Positions 28,438-41,807 of a DNA stretch of 64,000 nucleotides are shown piece by piece. The position numbers were made by a program, and so were the translations under genes. A model generated the notes under the pieces. That model was not told where the DNA came from, did not search any database, and saw only the letters and a list, made by a program, of their open reading frames with translations. This DNA is from Roseateles puraquae. Its GTDB lineage: Bacteria > Pseudomonadota > Gammaproteobacteria > Burkholderiales > Burkholderiaceae_C. The stretch is from contig NZ_NISI01000011.1 of assembly GCF_002205845.1 (NCBI RefSeq), positions 1 through 64,000 of the forward strand, written 5' to 3'. The stretch's first letter is position 1. Each line of letters starts with the position of its first letter.

Positions 28438-28620
28438 ATCCGCTCGGGCTTTCGTTGACAGGGTGCGGCCCAGCATACGCCCGCGGGCGAGGCAAGACCT
28501 GTCACTTCCTGTGCAAACCACACCCAGCTGCGGGGTTTCGCACAGCGAGGCTTCGGTGTGCGTGATTCGCCGAAGCCGGGTTGTTACGAACGCTGCCGTG
28601 GCAAGGTGACGCTAGCATCA

Positions 28621-28634
28621 TGAAAGCGTTTTCA
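28621..28634. promoter_or_regulatory. LacI/GalR-type operator
   Basis: TGAAAGCGTTTTCA matches the palindromic LacI/GalR-family operator form TGAAA-N-CG-N-TTTCA with a central CG. It overlaps an ATG at 28620, which argues that this ATG is not the start codon and that the true start is downstream. Confidence 0.65.
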
Positions 28635-28703
28635 GAAGGCTCTCAAACCCAGGGTGACTGCGCGTCTGCCAGCGACGCGCGGCGCCTGCCACTGCTGTCC
28701 GCC

Positions 28704-30920
28704 ATGCGACCTCGACACCTGCTGCGCCACGCCGCCGCCTTGGCCTGCGCGGCATCGACTGCCTGCGCCTTCGCAGCACCGGCCGACACCGCCCGCTCGC
28801 CCATGAAGATCACCGTGCAAGGCACCCAGATCGCCGGCCCTGACCAGGACGACCGCGGCGAGCCCGACTGGCTGGCGCGCATGAACAACTGGCGGCGCGA
28901 TCCCGCCGGCACGCATGCGGCCTGGCTGCAGGCGATGCAAGCCTGGCGCGAGGCCGAGCGCCGCCGCATCGGCTTCGACGATGCCCAGTACCGCCGGCCC
29001 GAGCTGCAGTGGACGCAGCGCAGCTTCGTGCAGCCGCAGGTGATGGTGGAAGACCGCCTGCTCTACGACCCGGTCAAGCGCGTGTACACCGTGTCACGCC
29101 TGCTCGACGACCTGCGCCAGCGCTACGGTGGCATCGACAGCGTGTTGCTGTGGCCGGTCTACCCCAACAGCGGCGTCGATCACCGCAACCAGTGGGACCT
29201 GCTGCGCGACATGCCCGGTGGTGTGGCCGGCGTGAAGGCGATGGTGCAGGACTTCCAGCGCCAGGGCGTGCGGGTGTTCTTCCCCACGATGCCTTGGGAT
29301 GTGGGCACGCGCGACGAAGGCCTCAGCCAAGCCGAGGCGACGGTGGCGCTGCTGGCCGCGATTGGTGCGGATGGCGTCAACGGTGACACCATGCCCGGCC
29401 TGCCGATCGACTTCCTGCGGGCCGCCGAGGCGCGCGGCCTGGCGCTCGCGCTGGAGCCCGAGCTGCCGCTGCAGGACGACGCCATGCTCGCCTTCAACAC
29501 GCTGAGCTGGGGCTACTGGGCCACGCCCTTCGTGCCGATGGTGAGCAAATGGAAGTGGCTGGAACCGCGCCACATGGTGCATGTGTGCGATCGCTGGGCC
29601 ACCGACCGCAGCGACCTGCTGCAGGCCGCTTTCTTCAACGGCGCGGGCATTCAAAGCTGGGAAAACGTCTGGGGCTGGTGGAACGGCATCACGCCGCGCG
29701 ACGCTGCGGCCTTGAAGCGCATCGCGGGTGTGTACCGCGGCTGGCCGGCCCTGCTGTCGAGTGCCGGTTGGGAGCCCCATGTGCCCACCGGTCAGTACGG
29801 TGTTTATGCCAGCCGCTTCCCCGGCGAGGCCGAGACGCTGTGGACGGTGGTCAACCGCAACGACTTTGCCGTGGCCGAGTTGCCGCTGCGCGTGGCGCAT
29901 GTGGCGGGCGCGCGCTACCTGGATGCCTGGAACGGCCGCGAGCTGCAGGCCGAGGTCGGCGCCGACGGCCTGGCCCGGGTGACCTTGTCACTGGAGCCGC
30001 GTGGTTATGCCGCGTTGGTGCAGGTGCGCACGCCGGCCGCCTTTGACGCCGCCGCGCCGGTGCTGAAGGCGCAGCGGGCGATGGCGGCCAAGCCGCTGGC
30101 TGCCTACTCGCGCGAATGGAAGGCCTTGCCGCAGCGCCTCGTGCCGCAGGCGGCGACACCCCGCGTGAAGGTGCCGCCGCCGGGCATGGTGACCGTGCCG
30201 GCAACCCAGGCCTTCGACTTCCGCGTCAGCGGCTTGCAGATCGAAGGCGAGAACCGGCCGGGGCTCGACGTGCAGTACCCGTGGGAGTCGGTCGCGCGGC
30301 GCGAGCATGTGCACCGCATGGCCGTGCCGGCGTTCCACATCGACCGGCATCCGGTCACCAACCAGGACTTCGCCCGCTTCCTGCAGGCCAGCGGCTACCG
30401 GCCCGCGGATGCGCACAACTTCCTGACGCATTGGTCGAGCGGCCAACCAGCACCCGCCGACCTGCGCCGGCCGGTCACCTGGGTGGGCCTGGAAGATGCA
30501 CGCGCCTACTGCCGCTGGGCCGGCAAGCGCCTGCCGCATGAGTGGGAATGGCAGTACGCCGCCCAGGGCCTGGACGGGCGGCGCTACCCCTGGGGCAATG
30601 ACTGGCGCGAAGGCCACACGCCGGCCGCGCACACCGCACGCAGCCTGCCCGTGCTCGCCGAGGTGGGCCAGTACCCGCAGGCGGCCAGCCCCTTCGGCGT
30701 GCAGGAGCTGGTGGGGCACCTGTGGCAGTGGACGGACGAGTTCGAGGACGACCGCACCCGCGCCGCCATCGTGCGGGGCGGCAGCCCCTACCAGCCGCAG
30801 GGCGCGTCCTGGTACTTCCCGAACACGCAGCGCCTGGACCAGCACGGCAAGCTGCTGCTGATGGCCCCGTCCAAGGACCGCTCGGGGCTGATCGGCTTTC
30901 GCTGCGTGGCTGACACCTGA
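28704..30920 (+). CDS. Secreted fusion of a glycosidase-like barrel and a formylglycine-generating-enzyme (FGE/SUMF1)-like domain
   Basis: The 738-residue protein starts with a signal peptide (RHLLRHAAALACAASTACAFAA). Residues about 60-480 look like a TIM-barrel glycoside hydrolase with a beta-sandwich tail: YGGIDSVLLWPVYPNSG, RVFFPTMPWDVG, ADGVNGDTM, then WTVVNRNDFAVAELPLRV. The C-terminal part (about 510-738) is an FGE-sulfatase domain: FHIDRHPVTNQDFARFLQASGY, WAGKRLPHEWEWQYAAQG, LVGHLWQWTDEFEDD, IVRGGSPY, GLIGFRC. The two catalytic Cys of true FGE are not in the expected loop, so this domain probably binds rather than oxidises. The barrel substrate is unknown; a LacI-type operator upstream suggests carbohydrate control. 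An ATG at 28620 is a less likely start. Confidence 0.75.
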   Translation: MRPRHLLRHAAALACAASTACAFAAPADTARSPMKITVQGTQIAGPDQDDRGEPDWLARMNNWRRDPAGTHAAWLQAMQAWREAERRRIGFDDAQYRRPELQWTQRSFVQPQVMVEDRLLYDPVKRVYTVSRLLDDLRQRYGGIDSVLLWPVYPNSGVDHRNQWDLLRDMPGGVAGVKAMVQDFQRQGVRVFFPTMPWDVGTRDEGLSQAEATVALLAAIGADGVNGDTMPGLPIDFLRAAEARGLALALEPELPLQDDAMLAFNTLSWGYWATPFVPMVSKWKWLEPRHMVHVCDRWATDRSDLLQAAFFNGAGIQSWENVWGWWNGITPRDAAALKRIAGVYRGWPALLSSAGWEPHVPTGQYGVYASRFPGEAETLWTVVNRNDFAVAELPLRVAHVAGARYLDAWNGRELQAEVGADGLARVTLSLEPRGYAALVQVRTPAAFDAAAPVLKAQRAMAAKPLAAYSREWKALPQRLVPQAATPRVKVPPPGMVTVPATQAFDFRVSGLQIEGENRPGLDVQYPWESVARREHVHRMAVPAFHIDRHPVTNQDFARFLQASGYRPADAHNFLTHWSSGQPAPADLRRPVTWVGLEDARAYCRWAGKRLPHEWEWQYAAQGLDGRRYPWGNDWREGHTPAAHTARSLPVLAEVGQYPQAASPFGVQELVGHLWQWTDEFEDDRTRAAIVRGGSPYQPQGASWYFPNTQRLDQHGKLLLMAPSKDRSGLIGFRCVADT

Positions 30921-30942
30921 GCCCGCGCGGGGCCCGGCGGGG

Positions 30943-31851
30943 TCAGCTCGCTTCGCCGCGCAGCTTGTCGAGGATGCCGGAGAGGGCGTCCAGGGAGTCG
31001 AAGTGGATAGCCAGCTCGCCACTCTGGCCGCCCTTCTTGGTGCGCTTCTTGACGCGCACTTCCACCGTGGCGCCGAGCGCGTCGGCCAGCTCTTCTTCCA
31101 GGCGCAGCACGTCGCGGCTCTTGTCAGTCTTCACGCGCAGCAGCGGCGTCTGGCGGGCCGAGCCCTGGGCCTTGGCGACGAGCTTCTCGGCCTCGCGCAC
31201 GCTGAGCTTCTTGGCGGCGATCTCGCTGGCCGTGGTGATCTGCGTGGCGCCATCCAGCGGCAGCAGGGCGCGGGCGTGGCCCATGTCCAGGTCGCCGGCC
31301 ATCAGCATGTTCTGCACCGGGGCGGCCAGGTTGAGCAGGCGCAGCAGGTTGCTGGCGGCGCTGCGCGAGCGGCCCACCGCCTGCGCAGCCTGTTCGTGCG
31401 TGAGGCCGAACTCTTCGGTCAGGCGCTTCAGGCCCTGGGCCTCTTCCAGCGGGTTCAGGTCTTCGCGCTGGATGTTCTCGATGAGGGCCATGGCGGCGGC
31501 TGACTCGTCGGGCACCGCCTTGACCAGCACCGGGACCTCGCGCAGCCCGGCGAGCTTCGCTGCACGGAAGCGCCGCTCGCCCGCGATGATCTCGTAGCCC
31601 ACCGCGCCGTTGGGCGTGATCGGGCGAACCAGAATCGGCTGCATGATGCCCTGGCCCTTGATGCTCTCGGCCAGCTCGTAGAGCGAGCCTTCGTCCATGC
31701 GGGTGCGCGGCTGGTACTTGCCGGCCTGCAGTTGCTCCAGCTTGAGCGTGCTGGGCGTGCCCTCGCGTTCGGGCGCGGGGGTGTCGCTGACTTTGGGGCC
31801 GAGCAGGGCTTCGAGGCCGAGGCCGAGGCCTTTGGGTTTCTTGGTCGCCAT
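30943..31851 (-). CDS. parB: Chromosome partitioning protein ParB (parS-binding CTPase)
   Basis: The 302-residue protein has the N-terminal ParB/Srx-like domain with GERRFRAAK (91-99) and ENIQREDLNPLEEA, a central HTH (LTHEQAAQAVGRSRSAASNLLRLLNL) and a C-terminal dimer domain. It loads on parS, spreads as a CTP-dependent clamp and works with ParA to move the chromosome origin. It lies 16 bp after an RBBP9-type hydrolase gene and about 9 kb from parA, instead of the usual close parA-parB linkage. Three parS sites are in rsmG and mnmG near parA. Confidence 0.97.
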   Translation of the reverse strand: MATKKPKGLGLGLEALLGPKVSDTPAPEREGTPSTLKLEQLQAGKYQPRTRMDEGSLYELAESIKGQGIMQPILVRPITPNGAVGYEIIAGERRFRAAKLAGLREVPVLVKAVPDESAAAMALIENIQREDLNPLEEAQGLKRLTEEFGLTHEQAAQAVGRSRSAASNLLRLLNLAAPVQNMLMAGDLDMGHARALLPLDGATQITTASEIAAKKLSVREAEKLVAKAQGSARQTPLLRVKTDKSRDVLRLEEELADALGATVEVRVKKRTKKGGQSGELAIHFDSLDALSGILDKLRGEAS

Positions 31852-31867
31852 GGGGGCGGATTGTCGT

Positions 31868-32407
31868 TCAGCCCTTCAACAGGCCGTGCAGCAGCTCGCG
31901 GCCCTCGGGCCAGTCGCCCAGGCCCGAGTCGGCATTCAGGTGGCCGCGCGGCCCCGCGATGACGACGCTGCTGCCCCAGTCGGCCGCCATCTGGGTGCTG
32001 CGCTCGGCGGCGCCGTAGGGGTCGTCGCTGCTGATGACCGCGACGCTCGGGAAGGGCAGGCGCGTGCGACGGATGGGCCGCCAGTTGTGCAGCTGCGGCG
32101 GGGTGTCTTCACGCTCGGTGTCGGGTGGCGCCACCAGCAGCGCGCCCTTCACACGGGCGGTGTGCTGCGAATGCTCGGCCCAGCTCGCCACCAGCTGGCA
32201 GCCCAGCGAATGCGCCACCAGCACGGCCGGCGCGTCGTCCTGCAGCAGCACCTCGTCCAGCCGGGCCATCCAATCGCCGCGCCGGGGCCAGTGCCAGTCG
32301 TGCTGTTCCACCCGCTGGTCGCCATGCAGGCGCTCCCAACGGCTTTGCCAATGCTCGGGGCCGGAGTTCTGCCACCCGGGCAGCAGCAAGACGCGCGATG
32401 AATTCAT
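31868..32407 (-). CDS. RBBP9/YdeN-type small alpha/beta-hydrolase
   Basis: The 179-residue hydrolase has the N-terminal LLLPGWQNSGPEHWQ, nucleophile S67 in VAHSLGC, an Asp in ISSDDPYG and the catalytic His in GPRGHLNADSGLGDWPEG, all hallmarks of the RBBP9 family (Ser-Asp-His triad). The substrate is unknown; relatives are serine hydrolases. It precedes parB by 16 bp and is probably co-transcribed. In related Burkholderiales I recall such a gene between parA and parB, which would make it a marker of the original locus. Confidence 0.88.
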   Translation of the reverse strand: MNSSRVLLLPGWQNSGPEHWQSRWERLHGDQRVEQHDWHWPRRGDWMARLDEVLLQDDAPAVLVAHSLGCQLVASWAEHSQHTARVKGALLVAPPDTEREDTPPQLHNWRPIRRTRLPFPSVAVISSDDPYGAAERSTQMAADWGSSVVIAGPRGHLNADSGLGDWPEGRELLHGLLKG

Positions 32408-32458
32408 GGTTTGCCCTTATCCTGACGGGCTCGATTCTCAGCGGTTGGAGCAGCGGCG

Positions 32459-33406
32459 ATGACGTTCAAGGTGTTTGTGGATGGACAAGAGGGCACGACG
32501 GGTCTGCGGATCCATGAATACCTCGCCGCGCGCAGCGACATCGAGGTCCTGAAGATCGACGCCGACAAGCGCAAGGACCCTGCCGAGCGCTCGCGCCTGC
32601 TGAATGCGGCGGACGTGGCCTTCCTGTGCCTGCCGGACGCCGCCTCGCGCGAGGCGGCCTTCATGGTCAACAACCCCAACACCTGCCTGATCGACGCCAG
32701 CACCGCGCACCGCACCGCGCCGGGCTGGGCCTTCGGCTTGCCGGAGCTGGCGCGCGGCCAGCGCGGCGCCATCCAGGCCAGCAAGCGCATTGCCAACCCG
32801 GGCTGCCATGCCAGCGCCTTCATCCTGGCGGTGCGGCCCCTGGTGGACGCCGGCCTGCTGCCGCGCGACGCGGCCGTGACGGCCACGTCCATCACCGGCT
32901 ACTCCGGCGGCGGCAAAAGCATGATTGCGGAGTACCAGCAGCAGCCGCTGCCGGCCCACCTGCAGGCGCCGCGCCCCTATGGCCTGGGCCTCAAGCACAA
33001 GCACCTGCCCGAGATGATGGCTCACACAGGCCTGGCCACGCCGCCGGTGTTCATGCCCATCGTCAGCAGCTTCTACAAGGGCCTGACGGTCAGCGTGCCG
33101 CTGCAGCTGAGCCAGCTTGCGCCCGGCACGACGCCTGAGGCCGTGCACGCCGCCCTGGCTGCACACTACGCCGGCGAGCGCTTCATCAACGTGATGCCGC
33201 TGCGCGACGCCGCCACGCTGGAGGCGGGCTTCTTCGACGTGCAGGCCTGCAACGACACCAATCGCGTGGACCTGTTCGTCTTCGCGTCTGACACGCAAGT
33301 GCTGGTCATGAGCCGGCTGGACAACCTCGGCAAGGGCGCCAGCGGCGCGGCCGTGCAGGCAATGAACGTCCACCTCGGGGTGGAGGAGACGCTGGGTCTG
33401 GTCTGA
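32459..33406 (+). CDS. argC: N-acetyl-gamma-glutamyl-phosphate reductase (short, type 2)
   Basis: The 315-residue enzyme reduces N-acetylglutamyl phosphate to the semialdehyde in arginine synthesis. The NADP-binding start ([20 protein letters not shown]), catalytic C116 in NPGCHASAF, and the Type 2 features [13 protein letters not shown] and [10 protein letters not shown] identify it. It is transcribed away from the parB group, with only 51 bp between the divergent starts. No other arg genes are near. GGAG is 9 nt before the ATG. Confidence 0.96.
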
Positions 33407-33479
33407 CCCGAGGCCGGCGCCCGCGCGGATGGCGATACTGCGGCCATCCATAACCACACAGGCGCAGGGAAGGCGACGG

Positions 33480-35897
33480 ATGGGGACAGCGAGGTCATCG
33501 CCGCAGGCGCTGCAGCCGCTGCTGGGCGGCGTGCATCTGGCCAGCGCGGCCGACCGCCACGGCCGCTCGGTCGCCGAGGCTTCTGATGACGGGCGCCAGC
33601 TGCTGGCCCAACAGGCCTTGCGTTGGACCTATGTCGTGCGCTCGCGCCAGCGTTGGGTGCACGACCCCGCCCTGCGCGAGCAGCTCGAGGCCTCGGCCCG
33701 CGACAGCCTCGCTGCGCTGGGTGTGAGCGAGGAGGCGCTGCAGGCCCTGGCCCGCGAGCCTCTGGTGGTGGTGCGCATGCCCTATCGGCACGAAGCGCTG
33801 GGCTGGGAAGGGCGGGTGCTGCCCTGGGAATACCTGCTCGCCGCCGCCACCCGTGGCCGCCGCCGCAGCCCCACGGGCCGGCCGCGCCCCCTGACCGTCA
33901 TCCGCGAGCTGCAGGTGCAGCTCGAAGACCAGGGCCGCTGGACCGTGCGCTCGCAGCCTCGCGTGAGCTTGCCGTCGCAGCCGCGGGCGCTGTTCGTGAC
34001 CGCGCTGCCGCCCGAGTTGCGCACCACCTGGCCTGTGGACGCCGAGCTGGCCCAGTTCCGCCGCGCGCTACCGGCCGATGTGGTGGCCTTGCGGGTGCTC
34101 GACTATCCGAGCCTGGACGAATTCGGCCAGGTCCTGCGGGACTTTCAGCCGACCCTGCTGCACATCGCGGGCGTGGACGCCCACCAGGGCCTGCGTGAAC
34201 TGCAGCGCGTGGCGGGCGGCGGCCGGGTGGTGCAGGTGCTGGGCAGCGACGCCGGCGCGACGCCACGCGACTGGGCCCTCCAGGCGCTGCTGGCTGACCG
34301 GCATCAGCGTGTCGACGGACTGCTGTTGCGAGGCTCGGGCGGCCGGCCTCAGCTGGTGCCGGCACAAGCGCTGGCGCGGGCGGCGGCGGGTGCCGCCCGG
34401 GGCGCGGAGGTGCCGGTCTACCTGACCACCTTCAACGTGTGGAACAGCGCGGCGCGCCTGGCGCCGCTGATGGTGGGCGAGGGCGCCTCGCTGGCCGCCG
34501 TGGGCTTTCAGGACGCATTTGACGACGCGCTGGCGGAGTTCATGCTCGTGCAGTTGTTGCAGGGCCTGTTCGCCAACGGCTTCGACCTGCCGAGGGCCTT
34601 CGAGCGGGCCTGGCTCATCGTGCGCGAGCTGCCCGGCGCGGTCGATGCCACCGGCGTCACCTTGTGGGCCGGGGCGCCCGTGCTCGCGCCGCCTGCGGCT
34701 GCGACCCGTCGCCGGGCGGTGGTGCCGCGGCCTCAGCCGGCCGTGCAGCGCGCGGCACCGAGCGTGCAGTGCCAGGTCGAGCCGCTGGCCGAACTCAATT
34801 ACGCCGCCCTGCACAACGGGCAGCCGCTGTTCCGCCAGTTCGTGCTGAGTTGCGACGAGCCGGCGCGGGCGGCGCCGGTGGACGTGGACGTGGTGCTGGA
34901 CCTGGGGACCGAACAGGTGCGGTTCCAGCGCCACGTCACGCTGCAGCTGCAGCGTGAGAAGCTCACCGACCGCATCCATCTGCCGCTGGCCGCCGACACG
35001 GTGCGCAGCATCCGCGAGGCCGTGCAGGCGACGCTGCGGGTGCGCGTGGCCCAGGGCGAGCAGGTGCTGCACGACGACAGCTACCGCCTGCGTCTGCTGC
35101 CGGTCGATCAGTGGCGCGACAACGCCCACGACGGGCGCTGGCTGCCGTCCTTCGTGCTCCCGCGTGACCCGGCGGTCAGCCGCATCGTTCAGCAGGCCCA
35201 GCGCTACAACCGCGTGCTGCGCGACGACCCCAGCGCCGGCTTCGAGGGCTACCAGGGCGTGCCGTTCACGGCACTGGGCCGCGGAGCGCGCGTCGATGAA
35301 GCCTTGCTGCGGCGGGTGGACTGCCAGGTCGAGGCGGTGTGGGCCGCGCTGCTGCACGACGCCCGGCTCAGCTACATCAACCCGCCGCCGGCCTACAGCG
35401 AGGGGCGCGATTCGCAGCGGCTGCGCACGCCGTCCGCCGTGCAGGCCGAAGGTTCGGGCACCTGCATCGACCTGGCTTTGCTGTTCGCGGCCTGCCTGGA
35501 GTTCATCGACATCCACCCGGTCATCTTCCTGCTCGACGGCCATGCCATGCCGGGCTGGTGGCGCCACGCCAGCTTCCGCGACGAATACCTCGGATTGCGC
35601 GAGATGAGCCAGGCCGGCCTGGCCGAGGCGGCCGCCGACACCGGCGCCGACCCGGCGCAGGGCGTGCCCTGGCAGGCGGGCCGCGCGAGCTGGCCCGAGG
35701 TGGCGACCTGGATCCAGGAGCGCAAGCTGGTGCCGCTGGAGGCCGTGAAGCTGACGCAGCACGGCGGCTTCATCGAGGCCATCGAAGCCGGCATCGGCGC
35801 CCTGGGCGCGGGCAATCGCTTCGAGTCACTGCTGGACATCATGGCGGCACGCCGGGCGCTCGTGACGCCACTGCCGTTGATCGGAGGTGGCGCATGA
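33480..35897 (+). CDS. Degenerate CHAT-domain protein with C-terminal transglutaminase-like protease domain
   Basis: The 805-residue protein starts at 33480 behind GGGAAGG. Residues about 160-400 have the layout of a CHAT (caspase HetF-associated with TPRs) domain: RALFVTALPPEL, LQPTLLHIAG-like LLHIAGVDAH (227-236) and VPVYLTTFNVWNSAARL (311-327), then AVGFQDAFDDALAEFML. The catalytic His of the usual HxxGHG is Val (232), and the Cys of NACxSA is Trp (321), so the site is probably dead. About 430-545 is a beta-rich module. Residues 610-770 resemble a transglutaminase-like protease: C662 in GSGTCIDLALLFAACLE, H688 in DGHAMPGWW and a Glu near 754 in VPLEAVKLTQHGG. The next gene, a lipase-like hydrolase, overlaps by 4 bp. 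The order pseudo-CHAT, linker, active thiol protease is unusual; function unknown. Confidence 0.7.
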   Translation: MGTARSSPQALQPLLGGVHLASAADRHGRSVAEASDDGRQLLAQQALRWTYVVRSRQRWVHDPALREQLEASARDSLAALGVSEEALQALAREPLVVVRMPYRHEALGWEGRVLPWEYLLAAATRGRRRSPTGRPRPLTVIRELQVQLEDQGRWTVRSQPRVSLPSQPRALFVTALPPELRTTWPVDAELAQFRRALPADVVALRVLDYPSLDEFGQVLRDFQPTLLHIAGVDAHQGLRELQRVAGGGRVVQVLGSDAGATPRDWALQALLADRHQRVDGLLLRGSGGRPQLVPAQALARAAAGAARGAEVPVYLTTFNVWNSAARLAPLMVGEGASLAAVGFQDAFDDALAEFMLVQLLQGLFANGFDLPRAFERAWLIVRELPGAVDATGVTLWAGAPVLAPPAAATRRRAVVPRPQPAVQRAAPSVQCQVEPLAELNYAALHNGQPLFRQFVLSCDEPARAAPVDVDVVLDLGTEQVRFQRHVTLQLQREKLTDRIHLPLAADTVRSIREAVQATLRVRVAQGEQVLHDDSYRLRLLPVDQWRDNAHDGRWLPSFVLPRDPAVSRIVQQAQRYNRVLRDDPSAGFEGYQGVPFTALGRGARVDEALLRRVDCQVEAVWAALLHDARLSYINPPPAYSEGRDSQRLRTPSAVQAEGSGTCIDLALLFAACLEFIDIHPVIFLLDGHAMPGWWRHASFRDEYLGLREMSQAGLAEAAADTGADPAQGVPWQAGRASWPEVATWIQERKLVPLEAVKLTQHGGFIEAIEAGIGALGAGNRFESLLDIMAARRALVTPLPLIGGGA

Positions 35898-37264
35898 GCG
35901 CGACGCGCGCAACGCGAACAACGCGTGCAGGGCAAGCCGTCGACGCGCAGGCGTCCAGCACGCTGTGGGCGGGCGTGGCGGCGTCGCTGGCCGCGGTGCC
36001 GGTGCCTGCCGCGGCCTCGGCCGGACGGCGGGCGCCGGCACCGGCCGAAGGGGCACTGAGTCTCGTGCGCGAGGAGGGGCTGCTGCGCTGGGTCTATGAG
36101 CCCGCGGAGCCACGCGCGGCGGCGTCAGCGGGCCGGCGCAGCTGGCGGGTGGATGCCCTTCAGCCGCGCCAGACGGTGCAGCGCTTCCCCATTCCCGAGT
36201 TGGGCGACAACCAGGTGACGGCGGCGCTGCAACGGCTGGATCAGCGCCTGAACCCGGTGCTTGCCGGCCTGGACCGGCCGGCCGCGGGCCTGCGGCGCTG
36301 GGACGGCCATGGCTGGGCCCCGCTGCCGGCGGGCTTCCTGGCCGGGCTGACGGGGCGCGTGCTGGTGCTGGTGCACGGCACCTTCAGTGCGAGCGCGATG
36401 TACGCCCAGGAGTTCGCCGCGACGCCGGCTGGCCGTGCGCTGTGGGCGCGCTGTGGGCAAGCGGGGGCGCCTTATGCCGCCCTGCTGGCTTTTGATCATC
36501 CGACGCTGTCGGTCTCGCCCTGGCTCAATGCGCTGGCTTTGTGTGATGCGCTGACCGGCTGCACGGCCGAGTTGGACTTTGTCGGCCACAGCCGTGGCGG
36601 GCTGGTGGTGGCCTGGCTGCTGCGCATGGCTCCGGCGTTGCGTGCGCGCCAGGCGGTCTTCGTCGGCTCACCGCTGGCGGGCACCTCGCTCGCAGCGCCT
36701 GACAAGCTGCGCCAGGCGCTGGACACGCTCGCCAGCCTGGCCGATGCCCTCACGGCCACGGCAGCCCGTGCCGGCGCGGCCGCGCCGCCGGGTGTGGGGC
36801 CACTGGCCCTTGGCGTGGCCGGCCTGGCCTGTGCGCTGGCGCGCGTGCTGCAGTTGGGCGCCCGCAGCCCGCTGGCCGATGCGGCGGTCGGGCTGGTGCC
36901 GGGGCTGTTGGCGCAGGGGCGCGTGGCCAACAACCTCGAACTGGCGCAGCTATGGCCGTTGCAGACCCGCGCAGCCCTGCACGCCACCGGTGGCAGCTTC
37001 AAGCCCACCGAGGTGGACGAGCCGCTGTGGAAGCTCTGGAAGCGCGTCACCCACCTGAAGGACCAGGGCCTGTACTACGGGGCCGACCTGATCTTTGACC
37101 AGCCCAATGACCTGGTGGTCGACAGCGCCGCGATGAACCGCCTGGGCGACCTCACGCTGCCCGCGCCCCAGTGGCGCGACCTGGGCGAGAGCGCGACGAC
37201 GCATCACTGCAACTACTTCCAGGACGGGGCGGTGCTGGCCTGGCTGGACGCACTTTTGCGCTGA
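35894..37264 (+). CDS. Lipase-like alpha/beta-hydrolase coupled to the CHAT/transglutaminase gene
   Basis: The 456-residue protein starts at the ATG overlapping the preceding stop (ATGA), with GGAGGT 5 nt upstream. The hydrolase core runs from about 150: LVLVHGTFS with the oxyanion HG (161-162), nucleophile S233 in DFVGHSRGGLV, an Asp near 406-410 in DQPNDLVVD and His 437-438 in ATTHHCNYF. A hydrophobic insertion (about 270-345, rich in Ala and Leu) sits where lipases carry a lid and could contact membranes. The N-terminal 150 residues are Ala/Pro/Arg-rich and of unknown fold. No signal peptide, so it is cytoplasmic. Its tight coupling to a protease-like partner suggests that the protein is activated or restrained by it, and its most likely role is a membrane- or lipid-damaging effector. 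Substrate unknown. Confidence 0.75.
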   Translation: MSATRATRTTRAGQAVDAQASSTLWAGVAASLAAVPVPAAASAGRRAPAPAEGALSLVREEGLLRWVYEPAEPRAAASAGRRSWRVDALQPRQTVQRFPIPELGDNQVTAALQRLDQRLNPVLAGLDRPAAGLRRWDGHGWAPLPAGFLAGLTGRVLVLVHGTFSASAMYAQEFAATPAGRALWARCGQAGAPYAALLAFDHPTLSVSPWLNALALCDALTGCTAELDFVGHSRGGLVVAWLLRMAPALRARQAVFVGSPLAGTSLAAPDKLRQALDTLASLADALTATAARAGAAAPPGVGPLALGVAGLACALARVLQLGARSPLADAAVGLVPGLLAQGRVANNLELAQLWPLQTRAALHATGGSFKPTEVDEPLWKLWKRVTHLKDQGLYYGADLIFDQPNDLVVDSAAMNRLGDLTLPAPQWRDLGESATTHHCNYFQDGAVLAWLDALLR

Positions 37265-37414
37265 GCGGCGGCTGGCGGCTACCCGGTGCCGGGGCCCGTT
37301 GACGTGGGTGGGTCGTGCGTTCACGCCGTCGGCTGTCGATTCATCGCACACCGCTCGCCGGGGGTGGCGGGCTTCGTCACAGTGGCCGTCATTGCAACGC
37401 ACCGAGTGAACGCC

Positions 37415-37903
37415 ATGACTTCCACCGCCGCCGCCTTCCCCCTCTGGCCCTTGCTGATCCTGGCCCTGCTGATCGCGCTGGGATGGCGCCAGTCCCGAGA
37501 CCGCCTGGTGCAGCCGAAGACGCTGGTGCGGCTGGCCGTCATCATGCTGGCCTTGTCGCTGTACGGGGTGGCCTCTGCCTTCGGCGTGCAAGCGCTGCCG
37601 TTGCTGGCCTGGGCGGCGGGTTTGTCTGCCGTGCTGACGCTGGGCCGCCATGCGCTGGCGCCACGCATCCTGGCGCGTGAAGGGATGGCGGTGCGGCTGC
37701 AGGGCAGCTGGCTGCCGCTGGCGCTGATGCTGGGCATCTTTGCGGACAAGTTCGTGCTCGGCGTTGCGGCTGGCGTGGGCTCGCCGGTCGTGCACGAGGC
37801 CTGGTTCGTGGCTGCGGCCAGCCTGAGCTTCGGCCTGTTCAGCGGTGCCTTCGCGGCACGTGCCGCGGCGGTGCGGCGCGCCGTCAGCGCTGCCGCCGCC
37901 TGA
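37415..37903 (+). CDS. Integral membrane protein, unknown
   Basis: The 162-residue protein is hydrophobic with about five predicted membrane segments (starting near 8, 41, 59, 101 and 130). Recognisable phrases are LVRLAVIMLALSLYGVASAF and GSWLPLALMLGIFADKFVLGV. It lies 150 bp after the lipase-like gene, in the same orientation, and is convergent with the OmpA-type gene (3 bp between stops). The sequence resembles small hypothetical membrane proteins common in Burkholderiales. No function can be assigned. Confidence 0.65.
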   Translation: MTSTAAAFPLWPLLILALLIALGWRQSRDRLVQPKTLVRLAVIMLALSLYGVASAFGVQALPLLAWAAGLSAVLTLGRHALAPRILAREGMAVRLQGSWLPLALMLGIFADKFVLGVAAGVGSPVVHEAWFVAAASLSFGLFSGAFAARAAAVRRAVSAAAA

Positions 37904-37906
37904 GCC

Positions 37907-38938
37907 TCACTGCGCCACCAGCTCCACGCGCCGGTTGCGTGCGCGGCCGGCGTCGTCGCCATTGCCGGCCAGCGGTGCCAAAGAGGCGAGGCCCCTGGCT
38001 GTGAGACGCTTGCCGTCCACCTTGTAGGGCGCGGCGGTGAGGGCGGCCACCACGGCCTGGGCGCGGGCGAAGCTGAGCTTCTCGTTGGCGTCAAAGGGGC
38101 CGACGTTGTCGGTGTGGCCGACGATCCAGGCCTTGAGTGCCGGCTGGCTCTTCAGCAGCTCGGCCATGGCGTCCAGCTGGGCCTTGGACTCGGGCTTGAG
38201 CTCGGTCTTGCCGGTGTCGAAGAACAGACCCGTCAGCGTGACGCGGCCTTCGGCCGCGAGGCCGGCCTGCAGCGCGGCGGGGTCGACCGTGACCTGACCG
38301 GTGGCCATGGCCTTGGGCTCCACCACCTGCAGGTACGTGGCGACCAGCCCGGTCGTGGCGTTGGCCGCCAGCGAGGTGTAGAGCAGCACGGTGGCCTCCT
38401 GCCCGGGCTTGCCCAGCGTGCCCACCAGCATGCGGCCCTGGTCGAAGCTCAGCGCGGAGGTCAGGCTGTAGCGGCTGCCGGTAGGTGTGTCCAGGTCGCC
38501 CTTGGCCCACGTGAAGCCCTTGGTGGGGTCGAGCTGGCGTGACCACGCGAAGTAGAGGTCACTGCAGTCGCGCTCGCAGGCGAAGCGCTTCTTGAACCCG
38601 GCGGCATTCAGCGCCTGCTCGTAGTTGCGCCACACCTCCAGCGCCGACTTGCCGCGCGGGGCCACGTAGAGCAGCCGCGTGATCTTGCCCTCCAGCTCGA
38701 TGAGGTCCTTGAACTTGTATTTGTCGGCCTTCTGGAATTCGGGTGCGGCGGGTACAGCGGCGGCGTCCCAGTCGCTGACGCGCTGGCCGGCCAGCCATGA
38801 GCCGTTGAAGCGCTTGATGAGCGGGTGGTCAGCCGCACCCGGCACATCGGGTGCGAAGCCTTCGGCCGCGCGGGCCGGCAGCGTCAGCAGGCTGGCGGCA
38901 GCGACCAGGATGGTGGCGAGGCGATGGTGAAGTCTCAT
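37907..38938 (-). CDS. OmpA-family protein with N-terminal DUF4892-like domain
   Basis: The 343-residue protein has a signal peptide (RLATILVAAASLLTLPARAA), an N-terminal domain of about 200 residues (ADHPLIKRFNGSWLAGQRVSDWDAA, RLLYVAPRGKSALEVWRNYEQALNAAGFK) that matches DUF4892, and a C-terminal OmpA peptidoglycan-binding domain (LFFDTGKTELKPESKAQLDAMAELLK, IVGHTDNVG, ARNRRVELV). It is anchored in or near the outer membrane and binds peptidoglycan. A single-gene unit convergent with the preceding membrane gene. The 186 bp upstream hold no recognised gene. Confidence 0.9.
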   Translation of the reverse strand: MRLHHRLATILVAAASLLTLPARAAEGFAPDVPGAADHPLIKRFNGSWLAGQRVSDWDAAAVPAAPEFQKADKYKFKDLIELEGKITRLLYVAPRGKSALEVWRNYEQALNAAGFKKRFACERDCSDLYFAWSRQLDPTKGFTWAKGDLDTPTGSRYSLTSALSFDQGRMLVGTLGKPGQEATVLLYTSLAANATTGLVATYLQVVEPKAMATGQVTVDPAALQAGLAAEGRVTLTGLFFDTGKTELKPESKAQLDAMAELLKSQPALKAWIVGHTDNVGPFDANEKLSFARAQAVVAALTAAPYKVDGKRLTARGLASLAPLAGNGDDAGRARNRRVELVAQ

Positions 38939-39124
38939 GGCGCTTGGTGGAAGAGTTAGGCGGGCGGACCGTCGCCGACGGTGCGATGGCTCGCGATGGT
39001 GCCGCCGTCAACGCGCAGCGCGCGGGTCGTGATGGCCTTCAAACGAGGGACGGTGCAGTTCGGGAGGCGAGGTTTTTGTCGCCAGATGTAAGCGCCGAAG
39101 GCAAGGCCTGACGCCTAGCCCGTG

Positions 39125-39625
39125 TCAGCGGCTGCAGCGCGCCAGCTCGTAGCGGTGTTCGACGCACGGTTCGCCGCGGAACTCGGTCTCGATGCGTGCG
39201 AGGTGAACCGCACCCAGGCGGTCGAGCAGGCGCAGGCAGGCGGTGTTGCGGGCGTCGGTCTGCGCGTGGATGCGCTGCACCGGGGTCTCGGCAAACACGC
39301 GCTGGATGGCCTCGCGCACTGCGGCGCTGGCCAGGCCGCGGCCCTGGGCCGTGCGGGCGAGGGTGAAGCCGAACTCGGCCTCGGTGGCGTCGTTGCTGAT
39401 GTGGATGCCGATGTCGCCGATCAGATGGCCCGTCAGGTCGTCGGCGATCGCGAGCTGGGTCCAGCAGCCGGGCTCGAACAAGGCGCAGCTGGCCATCTCG
39501 TCCAGGAAGGCGGTGGCCTGGGCGTCGGTCTGCGGCTGCCAGCCTTGCCAGCGGCCCACCTCGGGATCGTGGCGGTAGGCCTGGAAGGCCGCCAGGTCCG
39601 TGCGGGCGAGGCGGCGCAGGCTCAT
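39125..39625 (-). CDS. GNAT acetyltransferase, RimJ/RimL type
   Basis: The 166-residue protein has the RimJ/RimL-type GNAT layout: SLRRLARTDLAAFQAYRHDPEVGRWQGW at the start, IGDIGIHISNDATEAEFGFTLARTAQGRGLASAAVREAIQRVF with the acetyl-CoA pyrophosphate loop (QGRGLA), and LRLLDRLGAVHLAR near the end. Its ATG overlaps the next GNAT stop (ATGA), so it is the last of four coupled genes led by parA. The acceptor is unknown. Confidence 0.85.
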   Translation of the reverse strand: MSLRRLARTDLAAFQAYRHDPEVGRWQGWQPQTDAQATAFLDEMASCALFEPGCWTQLAIADDLTGHLIGDIGIHISNDATEAEFGFTLARTAQGRGLASAAVREAIQRVFAETPVQRIHAQTDARNTACLRLLDRLGAVHLARIETEFRGEPCVEHRYELARCSR

Positions 39626-40380
39626 GTCAGCACAGCCTCCGGGCTGCGGTAGTGGTAGCGGTAGGCGAACACGAATCCCAGGCGGGCGTAGAGGCGTTGT
39701 GCCACGCTGTTGTCGCTGCCCACCTGCAGATAGGCCTGGCGTGCGCCTTGGGCTTGTGCCAGCGTCAGCAGCGCGCGGCACAGGCGCTCGCCATGGCCCT
39801 GGCGCGGCACGGCGCTGGCGATGTCGTAGAGGCCGACGAGGTCGCCGGCCACCACCATCTGGCCGCAGGCGAGCAGCTGGCCGTGGGAGTCGTTCAGCGC
39901 ATAGCCCTGGTAGCGCACCGGTGCGCTGGCGATGCGCTCGGCGTGCGCCGCGATGGCGGTGGCGCTCGACCCCCGCAGGCCGCCGACCAGGGCGGCGTAG
40001 GCGGGCGCATCCAGCGCCTGGAGCGGGGCGGGCGACGGTTCAGGGGTGAGGCGGTCGAGCACCATCACGTCGGCCGCATCGAAGGCGCCCCAGCCCTTGG
40101 CGGCGAGCTGGGTGTCCAGGTCGGCGGGCTGGCTCCAGGGCGTCACGCGCACGGCCAGCGGCAGCCCGGCGGCGTCAAAGGCGCGCTGGCAGCGGGCCAG
40201 CAGTTCGTCCAGCGGCAGCGTGCCTGCGCGCAGCGCATTGATGCAGCGGGAGCGCTTGGCCTTGCCCGGCGACAGGCGGATCAGCCAGCCGTCGATGTCG
40301 GTCTGCTGGGGGGGCGCGCTGGCGTCGAGGCCGGCAGCTTCGGCGCGCAGGGCGAGGGACATGAGGCGGGCGTCAGTCAT
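39622..40380 (-). CDS. GNAT acetyltransferase with N-terminal extension
   Basis: The 252-residue protein has a C-terminal GNAT domain (LYDIASAVPRQGHGERLCRALLTLAQAQGARQAYLQVGSDNSVAQRLYARLGFVFAYRYHYR) with a Gly-rich CoA loop (RQGHGE), and an N-terminal half (DGWLIRLSPGKAKRSRCINAL) related to other two-domain GNATs. The ATG at 40380 is preferred over 40413. It overlaps both neighbours and is the third gene of the parA operon. Target unknown. Confidence 0.82.
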   Translation of the reverse strand: MTDARLMSLALRAEAAGLDASAPPQQTDIDGWLIRLSPGKAKRSRCINALRAGTLPLDELLARCQRAFDAAGLPLAVRVTPWSQPADLDTQLAAKGWGAFDAADVMVLDRLTPEPSPAPLQALDAPAYAALVGGLRGSSATAIAAHAERIASAPVRYQGYALNDSHGQLLACGQMVVAGDLVGLYDIASAVPRQGHGERLCRALLTLAQAQGARQAYLQVGSDNSVAQRLYARLGFVFAYRYHYRSPEAVLT

Positions 40381-40912
40381 GGGCCGCCAGACGTTGCGGG
40401 TCGCGCCACACACAGCGCCACACCGGATGCTGCTGGCCGGCCAGCGGGTCGCTGAGCTGCAGGTCGCGCACCTCGGCGCCGAGCCGCTCGTAGAAGCCGA
40501 GGGCGGCCGTGTTGACGTCCAGCACCCAGAGATACAACGGGCGTTGCGAGCCGCTGCTCAGCAGCCGCTGTGCCACCGCCTGCATCAGCCGCCGGCCGAT
40601 GCCGCCGCCCTTGAGGTCGGGGGCCACATGCAGGTTGTCGATGTAGTCGCCCCAGGTGGGGTCGTGGTCGGGCATGACCCAGGCGAAGCCCAGCACGCGG
40701 CCGGTGTCGTCTTGCGCCACCACGCCCCAGTCGGCGCCTGTGGCCGCATTCAGCCGGGCGTGCCAGGCCTCGCGTCGCTCGGCTTCGGCCTGATGGTCGA
40801 GATAGTCGTCGGTGAAGACGCCCCGGTAGGCGCCGCGCCAGCTGGCCACGTGCAGGGCGGCGACGGCATCGGCGTCGGCCGGGTTCATGGGGCGAAGCGC
40901 GGGCGCGCTCAC
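40373..40912 (-). CDS. GNAT acetyltransferase, coupled to parA
   Basis: The 179-residue protein has a standard GNAT fold: LRPMNPADADAVAALHVASWRGAYRGVF, DNLHVAPDLKGGGIGRRLMQAVAQ with the CoA loop KGGGIG, and NTAALGFYERLGAEV. It starts at a GTG overlapping the parA stop by 4 bp (GTGA), so it is made together with ParA. Whether any of the three GNATs acts on ParA, ParB or a nucleoid protein is unknown. Confidence 0.85.
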   Translation of the reverse strand: MSAPALRPMNPADADAVAALHVASWRGAYRGVFTDDYLDHQAEAERREAWHARLNAATGADWGVVAQDDTGRVLGFAWVMPDHDPTWGDYIDNLHVAPDLKGGGIGRRLMQAVAQRLLSSGSQRPLYLWVLDVNTAALGFYERLGAEVRDLQLSDPLAGQQHPVWRCVWRDPQRLAAHD

Positions 40913-41682
40913 TTCATCGTCTCGATGCGCTTGACCATTTCCTTGGCGAAATCGACGAAGGCCTGTGCGCCCTTGGAGGTAGGGTCGAACACCACGCCCG
41001 GCAGGCCGTAGCTCGGGGCCTCGGCCAGGCGCACGTTGCGCGGGATGACGGTGTCGAAGACCTTGTTGCCAAAGTGCGCCTTGAGCTGGTCGCTGACCTG
41101 CTGCTGCAGCGTGATGCGCGGGTCGAACATCACGCGCAGCAGGCCGATGATCTGCAGGTCGTTGTTCAGGTTGGCGTGGATCTGCTTGATGGTGTTGACC
41201 AGGTCGGTCAGGCCTTCAAGCGCGAAGTACTCGCACTGCATCGGCACGATGACGCCGTGGGCGCTGCACAGGCCATTGAGCGTGAGCATGGACAGCGACG
41301 GCGGGCAGTCGATCAGGACGAAGTCGTAGTCGGGCCCCACCTCGGCCAAGGCGGCTTTGAGCCGGGCCTCGCGGCGCTCCAGGGCCACCAGGTCCACCTC
41401 GGCGCCGGCCAGTTCGCGGTTGGCGCCGAGCACGTCATAGCCAGCCTTCTCGGCGCGGGCCTTGGCCTCGGGGATGGAGGACGACTCCAGCAGCACGTCG
41501 TAGACCGTGGTCTCGAGCTTGCGCTTGTCGATGCCGGAGCCCATGGTGGCGTTGCCTTGAGGGTCGAGGTCGACGACGAGGACGCGCTGCCCGATCTGCG
41601 CCAGTCCGGCGGCGAGGTTGACGGTGGTGGTGGTCTTGCCGACGCCACCCTTCTGGTTGGCGATGCAGAAAATCTTGGCCAT
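40909..41682 (-). CDS. parA: Chromosome partitioning ATPase ParA (Soj)
   Basis: The 257-residue Walker-type ATPase begins MAKIFCIANQKGGVGKTTTTVNLAAGLA, with the deviant Walker A KGGVGKTT at 10-17, followed by DLDPQGNATMGSG and IDCPPSLSMLTLNGL. It forms the nucleoid gradient that moves ParB-parS complexes. The chromosomal length and lack of an N-terminal DNA-binding domain agree with chromosomal ParA. I use the ATG at 41682; a frame from 41754 reads through the palindromic repeat and is not credible. The expected parB partner is about 9 kb away at 30943. Confidence 0.97.
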   Translation of the reverse strand: MAKIFCIANQKGGVGKTTTTVNLAAGLAQIGQRVLVVDLDPQGNATMGSGIDKRKLETTVYDVLLESSSIPEAKARAEKAGYDVLGANRELAGAEVDLVALERREARLKAALAEVGPDYDFVLIDCPPSLSMLTLNGLCSAHGVIVPMQCEYFALEGLTDLVNTIKQIHANLNNDLQIIGLLRVMFDPRITLQQQVSDQLKAHFGNKVFDTVIPRNVRLAEAPSYGLPGVVFDPTSKGAQAFVDFAKEMVKRIETMK

Positions 41683-41726
41683 CTCTTGTTGTGCCGGGCG
41701 CTGAGTCGAACCGGGAGGATAAGCGC

Positions 41727-41807
41727 GAACACAGCCACAGAGGCACAGAGTCACAGAGAGAGAGGTATGGATTTCTCAGTGCCTCTGTGTCTGTGTGGCG
41801 CTGTTTC
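41727..41807. repeat. CACAGAG palindromic intergenic repeat, copy 2
   Basis: Left arm GAACACAGCCACAGAGGCAC (from 41727) and right arm TGCCTCTGTGTCTGTGTGG (from 41779) enclose about 16 bp. It fills the parA-rsmG gap. The match to copies 1 and 3 is strong, including the outer ACAGCCACAG/CTGTGTGG-type ends. Confidence 0.85.

What the first reader, a model, noticed from the sequence alone, without database searches (positions are those of the whole stretch)
33480..37264. Undescribed two-gene system: degenerate CHAT / transglutaminase-like protease coupled to a lipase-like hydrolase
The first gene joins a CHAT-type fold whose catalytic His and Cys are both replaced (V232 and W321) to a C-terminal transglutaminase-like thiol site (C662, H688, possible E754). 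The second gene overlaps by 4 bp and encodes a cytoplasmic hydrolase with a full Ser-Asp-His set (S233, D406/410, H437/438) and a hydrophobic lid-like insert. A protease-like sensor next to a lipid-acting effector is the shape of an abortive-infection or programmed-death module. Similar transglutaminase-like domains occur in large helicase proteins of defence type (DUF4011 class). The pair lies within foreign-looking DNA in the parAB locus. I know no named system with this combination.
Basis: partly seen in the sequence, partly recalled or inferred. Interest (0 to 1): 0.8.

Follow-up and report, generated by a model that had tools for sequence, protein, structure and literature searches.

The report
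Dead caspase-fold protease–lipase gene pair
Two overlapping bacterial genes encode a protein with a disabled caspase-like domain joined to a probably working second protease, and a lipase-like partner; they were always found together and may form a protease-controlled, membrane-damaging defence switch, which is untested.

Summary
Gene 1 (33480-35897) folds as CHAT (2.6 Å rmsd to SAVED-CHAT over 190 residues), then an Ig-like domain, then a transglutaminase-like (TG) domain. The CHAT catalytic His is absent in all 192 proteins examined (75 near, window included; 117 distant), while the TG triad C662-H688-E754 is present in all 192. The Ig-TG module is shared with defence-type helicases (Hhe, PDC-S37, NCBI 'anti-phage ProA'). 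Gene 2 (35894-37264) is a DUF7379 lipase-fold hydrolase with an invariant Ser-Asp-His set. Both genes are present in all 24 assessable carrier assemblies, usually with a 4-nt overlap. Elsewhere, 8 of 10 other strong DUF7379 loci are fused in one chain to a CHAT with intact His and Cys. So the hydrolase often partners CHAT, and here TG seems to have replaced CHAT catalysis. In Roseateles/Pelomonas the pair is argC-adjacent in the 14 of 20 genomes that carry it; composition is unremarkable, but three divergent versions occur there independently of the flanks. A defence role is untested. Best reading: protease-switched lipase conflict module. Caspase/hydrolase pairing is already described in VMAP systems, so this is a new variant of a known kind.

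The parts
33480..35897 (+). Gene 1: pseudo-CHAT / Ig-like / transglutaminase-like protein, 805 aa (alternative start 33429)
33495..34688 (+). Gene 1 residues 6-403: caspase-like double domain; CHAT core 163-401 without catalytic His (V232) or Cys (F318)
34764..35108 (+). Gene 1 residues 429-543: Ig-like beta domain
35280..35879 (+). Gene 1 residues 601-800: transglutaminase-like thiol site C662, H688, E754
   Evidence: NCBIfam ProA E 9.2e-46 over P0001 457-715, i.e. 440-698 in this numbering; Foldseek TG2 E 5.8e-4; invariance
35894..37264 (+). Gene 2: DUF7379 alpha/beta-hydrolase, lipase-like, 456 aa; 4-nt overlap with gene 1
   Evidence: Pfam PF24096 E 2.6e-25; fold
36584..36598 (+). Nucleophile elbow G231-H-S233-R-G235 of gene 2
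   Evidence: translation; S233 and G235 55 of 55
36698..36865 (+). Gene 2 residues 269-324: hydrophobic helical insert, possible lid
   Evidence: DSSP; hydropathy peak near 301

Best explanation
A two-protein, protease-switched lipase module of the bacterial conflict (immunity / programmed death) kind. Gene 1 is built on a catalytically dead CHAT domain that serves as sensor or scaffold, with a TG-like thiol peptidase as the live catalytic domain. Gene 2 is the effector, an alpha/beta-hydrolase that cuts lipids or other acyl esters once released or activated by gene 1. Shown: domain anatomy, loss of CHAT catalytic residues, invariant TG and hydrolase catalytic residues, strict linkage, a recurrent DUF7379-CHAT partnership, and a history of the pair coupled within itself but not to its flanks. 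Inferred: that TG is a peptidase, that it acts on gene 2, that gene 2 attacks membranes, and that the trigger is a phage or other invader.
For: Fold and catalytic columns. Ig-TG module homologous to NCBIfam 'anti-phage protein ProA' and to a 2184-aa PDC-S37/Hhe-type protein with the same Cys and His and a matching Glu. Both genes in 24 of 24 assessable carrier assemblies; 4-nt start-stop overlap in 16 of 18. Eight other DUF7379 proteins carry an intact CHAT in the same chain. One of these (Ruegeria) lies beside a SIR2_2 plus AAA_21 ATPase. Versions at the same site decoupled from flanks. One genome without the pair holds DUF4231 (below cut-off), DUF4062 and PGDYG-TPR-S genes in the same interval. 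Passages of PMC7159879 say that a caspase domain of a VMAP always has a neighbouring alpha/beta-hydrolase gene and that about 70% of effector-position caspase domains are inactive.
Against: No direct defence evidence: PADLOC finds neither protein; no relative confirmed in viral contigs (two peptide patterns each); none of gene 2 in phage records (gene 1 not searched there); no place in the plasmid records covers 80% of gene 1, and gene 2 matched one record, the Ruegeria fusion. Few of 106 pooled neighbours are defence-like and no background rate was measured. In its own genus the site is chromosomal and recurrent. No cleavage relation between the proteins was tested. TG-like domains can also be amidases or true transglutaminases.
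Confidence: 0.5

Rival explanations
1. A chromosomal envelope or lipid-homeostasis enzyme with a regulatory protease: gene 1 processes gene 2 (or senses envelope damage) and gene 2 remodels lipids or deacylates proteins; no immune function.
For: Recurrent argC-adjacent site in 14 of 14 genus carriers, with an OmpA-like gene nearby in many; neighbours that I could name elsewhere are largely metabolic or regulatory.
Against: Absent from 6 of 20 genus genomes and sparse in family and order; three divergent versions at one site; TG module shared with defence-type helicases; DUF7379 partnered with CHAT in unrelated loci.
Confidence: 0.27
2. A weapon between bacteria: gene 2 is a secreted lipase effector and gene 1 its processing or immunity partner.
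For: Lipase fold with lid-like insert; the best profile match of gene 2 in the PDB is a putative lipase whose structure title calls it a bacterial effector (E 0.003).
Against: By eye no secretion gene lies between parB and parA in the window; NCBIfam gives gene 2 only chance-level matches; gene 1 is large and conserved in its catalytic half, unlike an immunity protein.
Confidence: 0.08
3. TG acts as a cross-linking or deamidating enzyme on an invader or host protein, and the hydrolase is an unrelated metabolic passenger kept by translational coupling.
For: TG folds include transglutaminases and deamidases (established knowledge); no cleavage site in gene 2 is known.
Against: Hydrolase kept in 24 of 24 assessable carriers, down to about 35% identity; pair identities correlated r 0.88; DUF7379-CHAT fusions elsewhere.
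Confidence: 0.1

Closest known systems
VMAP (MoxR-vWA) ternary conflict systems, caspase + alpha/beta-hydrolase pairing (eLife 2020, PMC7159879; passages and one short section read)
   Same: A caspase-superfamily domain accompanied by a neighbouring alpha/beta-hydrolase gene; inactive caspase domains are common in the effector position; TG-like thiol peptidases occur there on rare occasions.
   Different: Only two linked genes; dead CHAT and TG in one chain. No MoxR-like P-loop was seen among the genes read between parB and parA, but the motif scan was crude: it missed ParA's own P-loop and hit ArgC by chance.
   Same: Same hydrolase family with a CHAT domain.
   Different: CHAT there keeps His and Cys and no TG domain was found; one chain rather than two genes; four of them also carry TPR-S.
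DUF4011/DUF3320 helicases: Hhe, PDC-S37, NCBIfam anti-phage ProA; [quoted passage not shown]
   Same: Homologous Ig-TG module with the same Cys and His and a matching Glu.
   Different: Gene 1 ends after the TG domain and starts with CHAT; 155.9 bits against the ProA cut-off of 1500.
Bacterial gasdermin with caspase-like protease (review PMC9612521, passages)
   Same: Works-like analogy: adjacent caspase-like protease and membrane-acting effector.
   Different: Effector is a lipase fold, not a pore; the live protease domain would be TG-like. No homology claimed.
SAVED-CHAT (PDB 8tl0)
   Same: Closest solved fold to the CHAT core.
   Different: CHAT lacks its catalytic residues here, and no SAVED domain was reported by the family searches.

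Membership tests
CHAT peptidase (PF12770) | CHAT fold | tested here: met
CHAT peptidase (PF12770) | Catalytic His (HG) and Cys | tested here: not met
   V232 and F318; His absent in 75 of 75 and 117 of 117
Transglutaminase-like superfamily | Cys-His-Asp/Glu triad in a TG-like domain | tested here: met
   C662, H688, E754 invariant; fold support moderate (Foldseek TG2 E 5.8e-4, ranked below a POMGNT2 match at 1.1e-4); triad geometry not measured
Transglutaminase-like superfamily | Peptidase or transglutaminase activity | not testable with these tools
   needs assay
DUF7379 (PF24096) | Match above curated cut-off | tested here: met
   89.9 bits against 33
NCBIfam NF058533 anti-phage ProA | Whole-protein score over the cut-off of 1500 bits | tested here: not met
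   155.9 bits, best stretch at profile positions 1-240 of 1903
VMAP ternary system | MoxR ATPase, vWA and VMAP genes together | tested here: inconclusive
   Only a crude P-loop pattern was run on 12 window genes from 28581 to 41754, and it missed ParA's P-loop; no profile for vWA or VMAP was run on the window
PADLOC defence systems | Match to a defence model | tested here: not met
   0 families for either protein at E up to 1

The most novel reading that the evidence does not exclude
A large cross-phylum family of pseudo-CHAT/Ig/TG proteins in which the caspase-fold protease has died as an enzyme and survives as a sensor (signature H-x-x-G-[hydrophobic]-D-x-H-Q), its catalytic job taken over by a TG peptidase shared with anti-phage helicases. 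In the Burkholderiales members the constant partner is a DUF7379 lipase, so this is a protease-swap inside an immune protease-lipase switch.
Probability: 0.33. Interest if true: 0.78.

Novelty: new variant of a known kind. Interest (0 to 1): 0.6.

Why it matters
If right, it shows how an immune protease can lose its active site yet keep its job by borrowing another protease, and it places the Ig-TG module of anti-phage helicases in a compact two-gene system that can be expressed and tested directly. It also suggests a function for DUF7379, a name that no paper of the searched library holds: a lipase-type effector working under a CHAT-fold controller.

Tried and rejected
Rejected: gene 1 as a member of anti-phage ProA (only the N-terminal module of that profile matches). 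Pair as plasmid-borne: gene 1 matched 73 plasmid records, none over 80% of its length; of the 20 listed, coverage was 25-34% and those with an annotation under the match read DUF3320 or DUF4011 protein; gene 2 matched one record. Pair as phage-borne: gene 2 had no match in phage records, and neither alignment gave a confirmed relative in viral contigs. 'Foreign by third-position GC'. Pair as Burkholderiales core. Cys equivalent at W321 (my motif reading puts it at F318).

Led nowhere: promoter and terminator scan (no promoter; two terminator-like sites inside gene 2, 1.0 expected); plasmid search with a Gimesia relative; an hhalign of gene 1 with four fused CHAT domains lined up the His region and the late helices but misplaced the Cys strand and gave probability 1.7%. 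Partner genes of the cross-phylum relatives could not be read, because no contig context is offered for them. Literature: ten searches in one open-access library; none of the titles, abstracts or passages that I saw names this combination. The one paper holding 'CHAT domain' and 'transglutaminase' (PMC9284123, passages) is unrelated. No paper on ProA as an anti-phage protein was found, so that label rests on NCBIfam.

Selection effects: A1 is the window protein plus 74 of the 120 relatives listed (305 found); A2 is the window protein plus 54 of the 120 listed (653 found); the distant set is 117 of the 120 listed (1177 found; three of 640 aa or less dropped). The neighbour pool is 106 ORFs chosen by me from 13 loci with a simple ORF picker, which is noisy and missed gene 2 in several loci. 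The pooled lists show 25 of 26 and 25 of 117 families.
Full report
OBSERVATION. Gene 1 (33480-35897, 805 aa) and gene 2 (35894-37264, 456 aa) are intact ORFs that overlap by 4 nt. Residue numbers below use the 33480 start; P0001 in some calls starts 17 residues earlier. The nearest relative (98% identical) is also 805 aa, which favours that start. The window lies in a Roseateles/Pelomonas-like genome, judged by the names of its nearest relatives.

WHICH ACTIVE SITES ARE ALIVE. The sequence alignment to 8tl0 puts its HG at V232-D233. Among the 75 rows of A1 (window included), position 232 is L, M, F, V or I and 233 is always D; position 318, where I place the CHAT Cys, is Cys in 1. A Piscinibacter relative at about 35% identity opened a wider family of 1177 proteins; of the 120 listed, 51 carry a precomputed CHAT domain, and source names include Vicinamibacterales, Krumholzibacteria, Eiseniibacteriota, Bryobacteraceae and Gimesia. 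In 117 of these the His is absent in all; position 233 is D in 116; Cys 318 is kept in 73; a His at 235 is present in 112. A relocated site using His 235 is therefore not excluded where Cys 318 survives, but not in the window protein. C662, H688 and E754 are invariant in 75 of 75 and 117 of 117. The TG core (601-700) keeps 72% mean identity to the window in the 54 more distant A1 rows, against 45% for CHAT. Selection thus sits on the TG enzyme. The two profiles A1 and A4 align over 711 columns, E 8e-225.

LINKAGE. In 17 of 17 genome loci that hold gene 1, gene 2 follows it. In the genus 14 of 20 genomes have both and 6 have neither. One further assembly (G134) ends inside gene 1 and cannot be judged. 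Gene 2 has a start codon in the gene 1 stop (ATGA or GTGA) in 16 of 18 loci; L002 and L013 do not. The pair is rare further out: near full-length gene 1 in 9 of 250 family genomes, 3 of 300 order genomes and, of 273 class genomes, only the window's own.

THE HYDROLASE'S USUAL PARTNER. Strong DUF7379 hits (E up to 1e-15) in 274 class and 398 phylum genomes, plus the one plasmid hit (Ruegeria), give ten loci besides the window. Eight (G132, G109, G678, G683, G395, G274, G339, Ruegeria) are single chains with a CHAT domain, with CHAT His and Cys motifs in place in all eight and no TG motif by pattern. G427 is cut by its contig end; G833 has another N-terminus and no CHAT by Pfam. Weaker hits over the cut-off are mostly small hydrolases (open frames of 209-254 aa, one of 594) that match part of the profile; their neighbours were not examined. 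Ruegeria's fusion lies beside a SIR2_2 plus AAA_21 ATPase. So the hydrolase's partner is a live CHAT elsewhere and a dead CHAT plus TG here: a protease swap, by inference.

SITE AND HISTORY. In the genus the pair lies next to argC in 14 of 14 carriers, within 0.3 kb in 12 and within 2.0 kb in the other two; in one (G001) parA is not on the far side. Of the six genomes without it, four have argC and parA 11.0, 3.2, 1.4 and 1.9 kb apart; in the other two one of the markers was not found. In G003 the interval holds a Pirin gene and DUF4231 (below cut-off), DUF4062 and PGDYG-TPR-S genes; that these are conflict-type is recalled; TPR-S also occurs in four of the CHAT fusions. Among 11 loci (55 pairs) argC proteins are 85-99% identical, parB 90-100%, gene 1 58-93%, gene 2 69-92%. 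Over 45 pairs (L005 left out), gene 1 tracks gene 2 (r 0.88) but not argC (-0.37) or parB (-0.12), while argC and parB track each other (0.53). Trees show three versions at one site: window + L005; G006 + G012; the rest. By flanks the window is next to L008 and L009. AU tests: pair data reject two flank groupings (p 2e-6, 5e-23), flank data reject the pair split (p 5e-6), but pair data do not reject window + L005 + L008 + L009 (p 0.08), and flank data do not reject L002 + L004 + L006 (p 0.09). The groups were named after seeing the trees. Exchange of the pair as a unit is the best reading; a burst of change in the window's lineage is not excluded. Window against L005, dN/dS is 0.14 (gene 1), 0.26 (gene 2), 0.03 (argC), 0.07 (small hydrolase), 0.15 (OmpA), 0 (parB, 137 codons) and 0.29 (parA, perhaps through a wrong start), so the pair is faster than most but not all neighbours.

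DEFENCE LINKS. PADLOC has no model for either protein. Of 20 neighbouring ORFs named by Pfam, most are metabolic or regulatory, such as glycosidases, a biotin carboxylase, RtcB and sensor kinases. In a pooled scan of 106 neighbours at E up to 1e-10, 26 families matched, 25 shown: two ORFs match LmuB, and one each PDC-S06, SoFic, PDC-M05A, PDC-S04, PDC-S24, mad2, PrrC, a subtilase and type IV DinG; several of these may be the same ORF. L015 holds two P-loop ORFs and one GNGR-bearing ORF near the pair, so those may lie there. No background rate was measured. Nothing was confirmed in viral contigs.

MECHANISM. A caspase-family domain with a neighbouring alpha/beta-hydrolase is described for VMAP systems (PMC7159879), as are inactive caspase domains thought to act as regulators or peptide binders. 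Caspase-like proteases that activate membrane effectors are known for bacterial gasdermins (PMC9612521, passages). I therefore propose: dead CHAT senses or scaffolds, TG cuts, DUF7379 hydrolase attacks lipids. Sensing, cutting and lipid attack are all inference.

NOVELTY. New variant of a known kind: the pairing principle is described; the TG swap, the two-gene form and the cross-phylum pseudo-CHAT/TG family were not found described in the ten literature searches listed under Tried and rejected.

Noticed in passing
L068:2397-7512 (G003): A genome lacking the pair carries DUF4231 (below cut-off), DUF4062 and PGDYG-TPR-S genes in the same argC-parA interval, perhaps an alternative conflict module at this site; PADLOC finds none of the three.
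   Followed up: partly
window 30943-41754: parB and parA are separated by about 9 kb holding, by eye, a small hydrolase, argC, the pair, a membrane protein, an OmpA-like gene and three GNATs; in relatives the argC-parA interval varies from 1.4 to 27 kb and can hold GH3, GH31 or alpha-2-macroglobulin genes.
   Followed up: partly
L005: A contig filed under a Methylotenera MAG is Roseateles-like (argC 99%, pair about 92% identical to the window), so it is probably mis-binned.
   Followed up: no
L061:7419-13316: Ruegeria pomeroyi megaplasmid: DUF7379-CHAT protein next to a SIR2_2 plus AAA_21 (PtuA-like) ATPase, itself a candidate defence locus.
   Followed up: partly
L124:5839-8151: A 770-aa DUF7379 protein whose long N-terminus has no Pfam match, possibly another controller domain for the same hydrolase.
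   Followed up: no
distant gene 1 family (P0244-P0363): Signature G-[hydrophobic]-D-x-H-Q with Cys 318 kept in 73 of 117 and His 235 in 112 of 117: a relocated or binding site is possible in those members.
   Followed up: partly
window 28581-30920: A 779-aa ORF that by eye ends in a formylglycine-generating-enzyme-like domain after a long unrelated N-terminal part; not searched.
   Followed up: no
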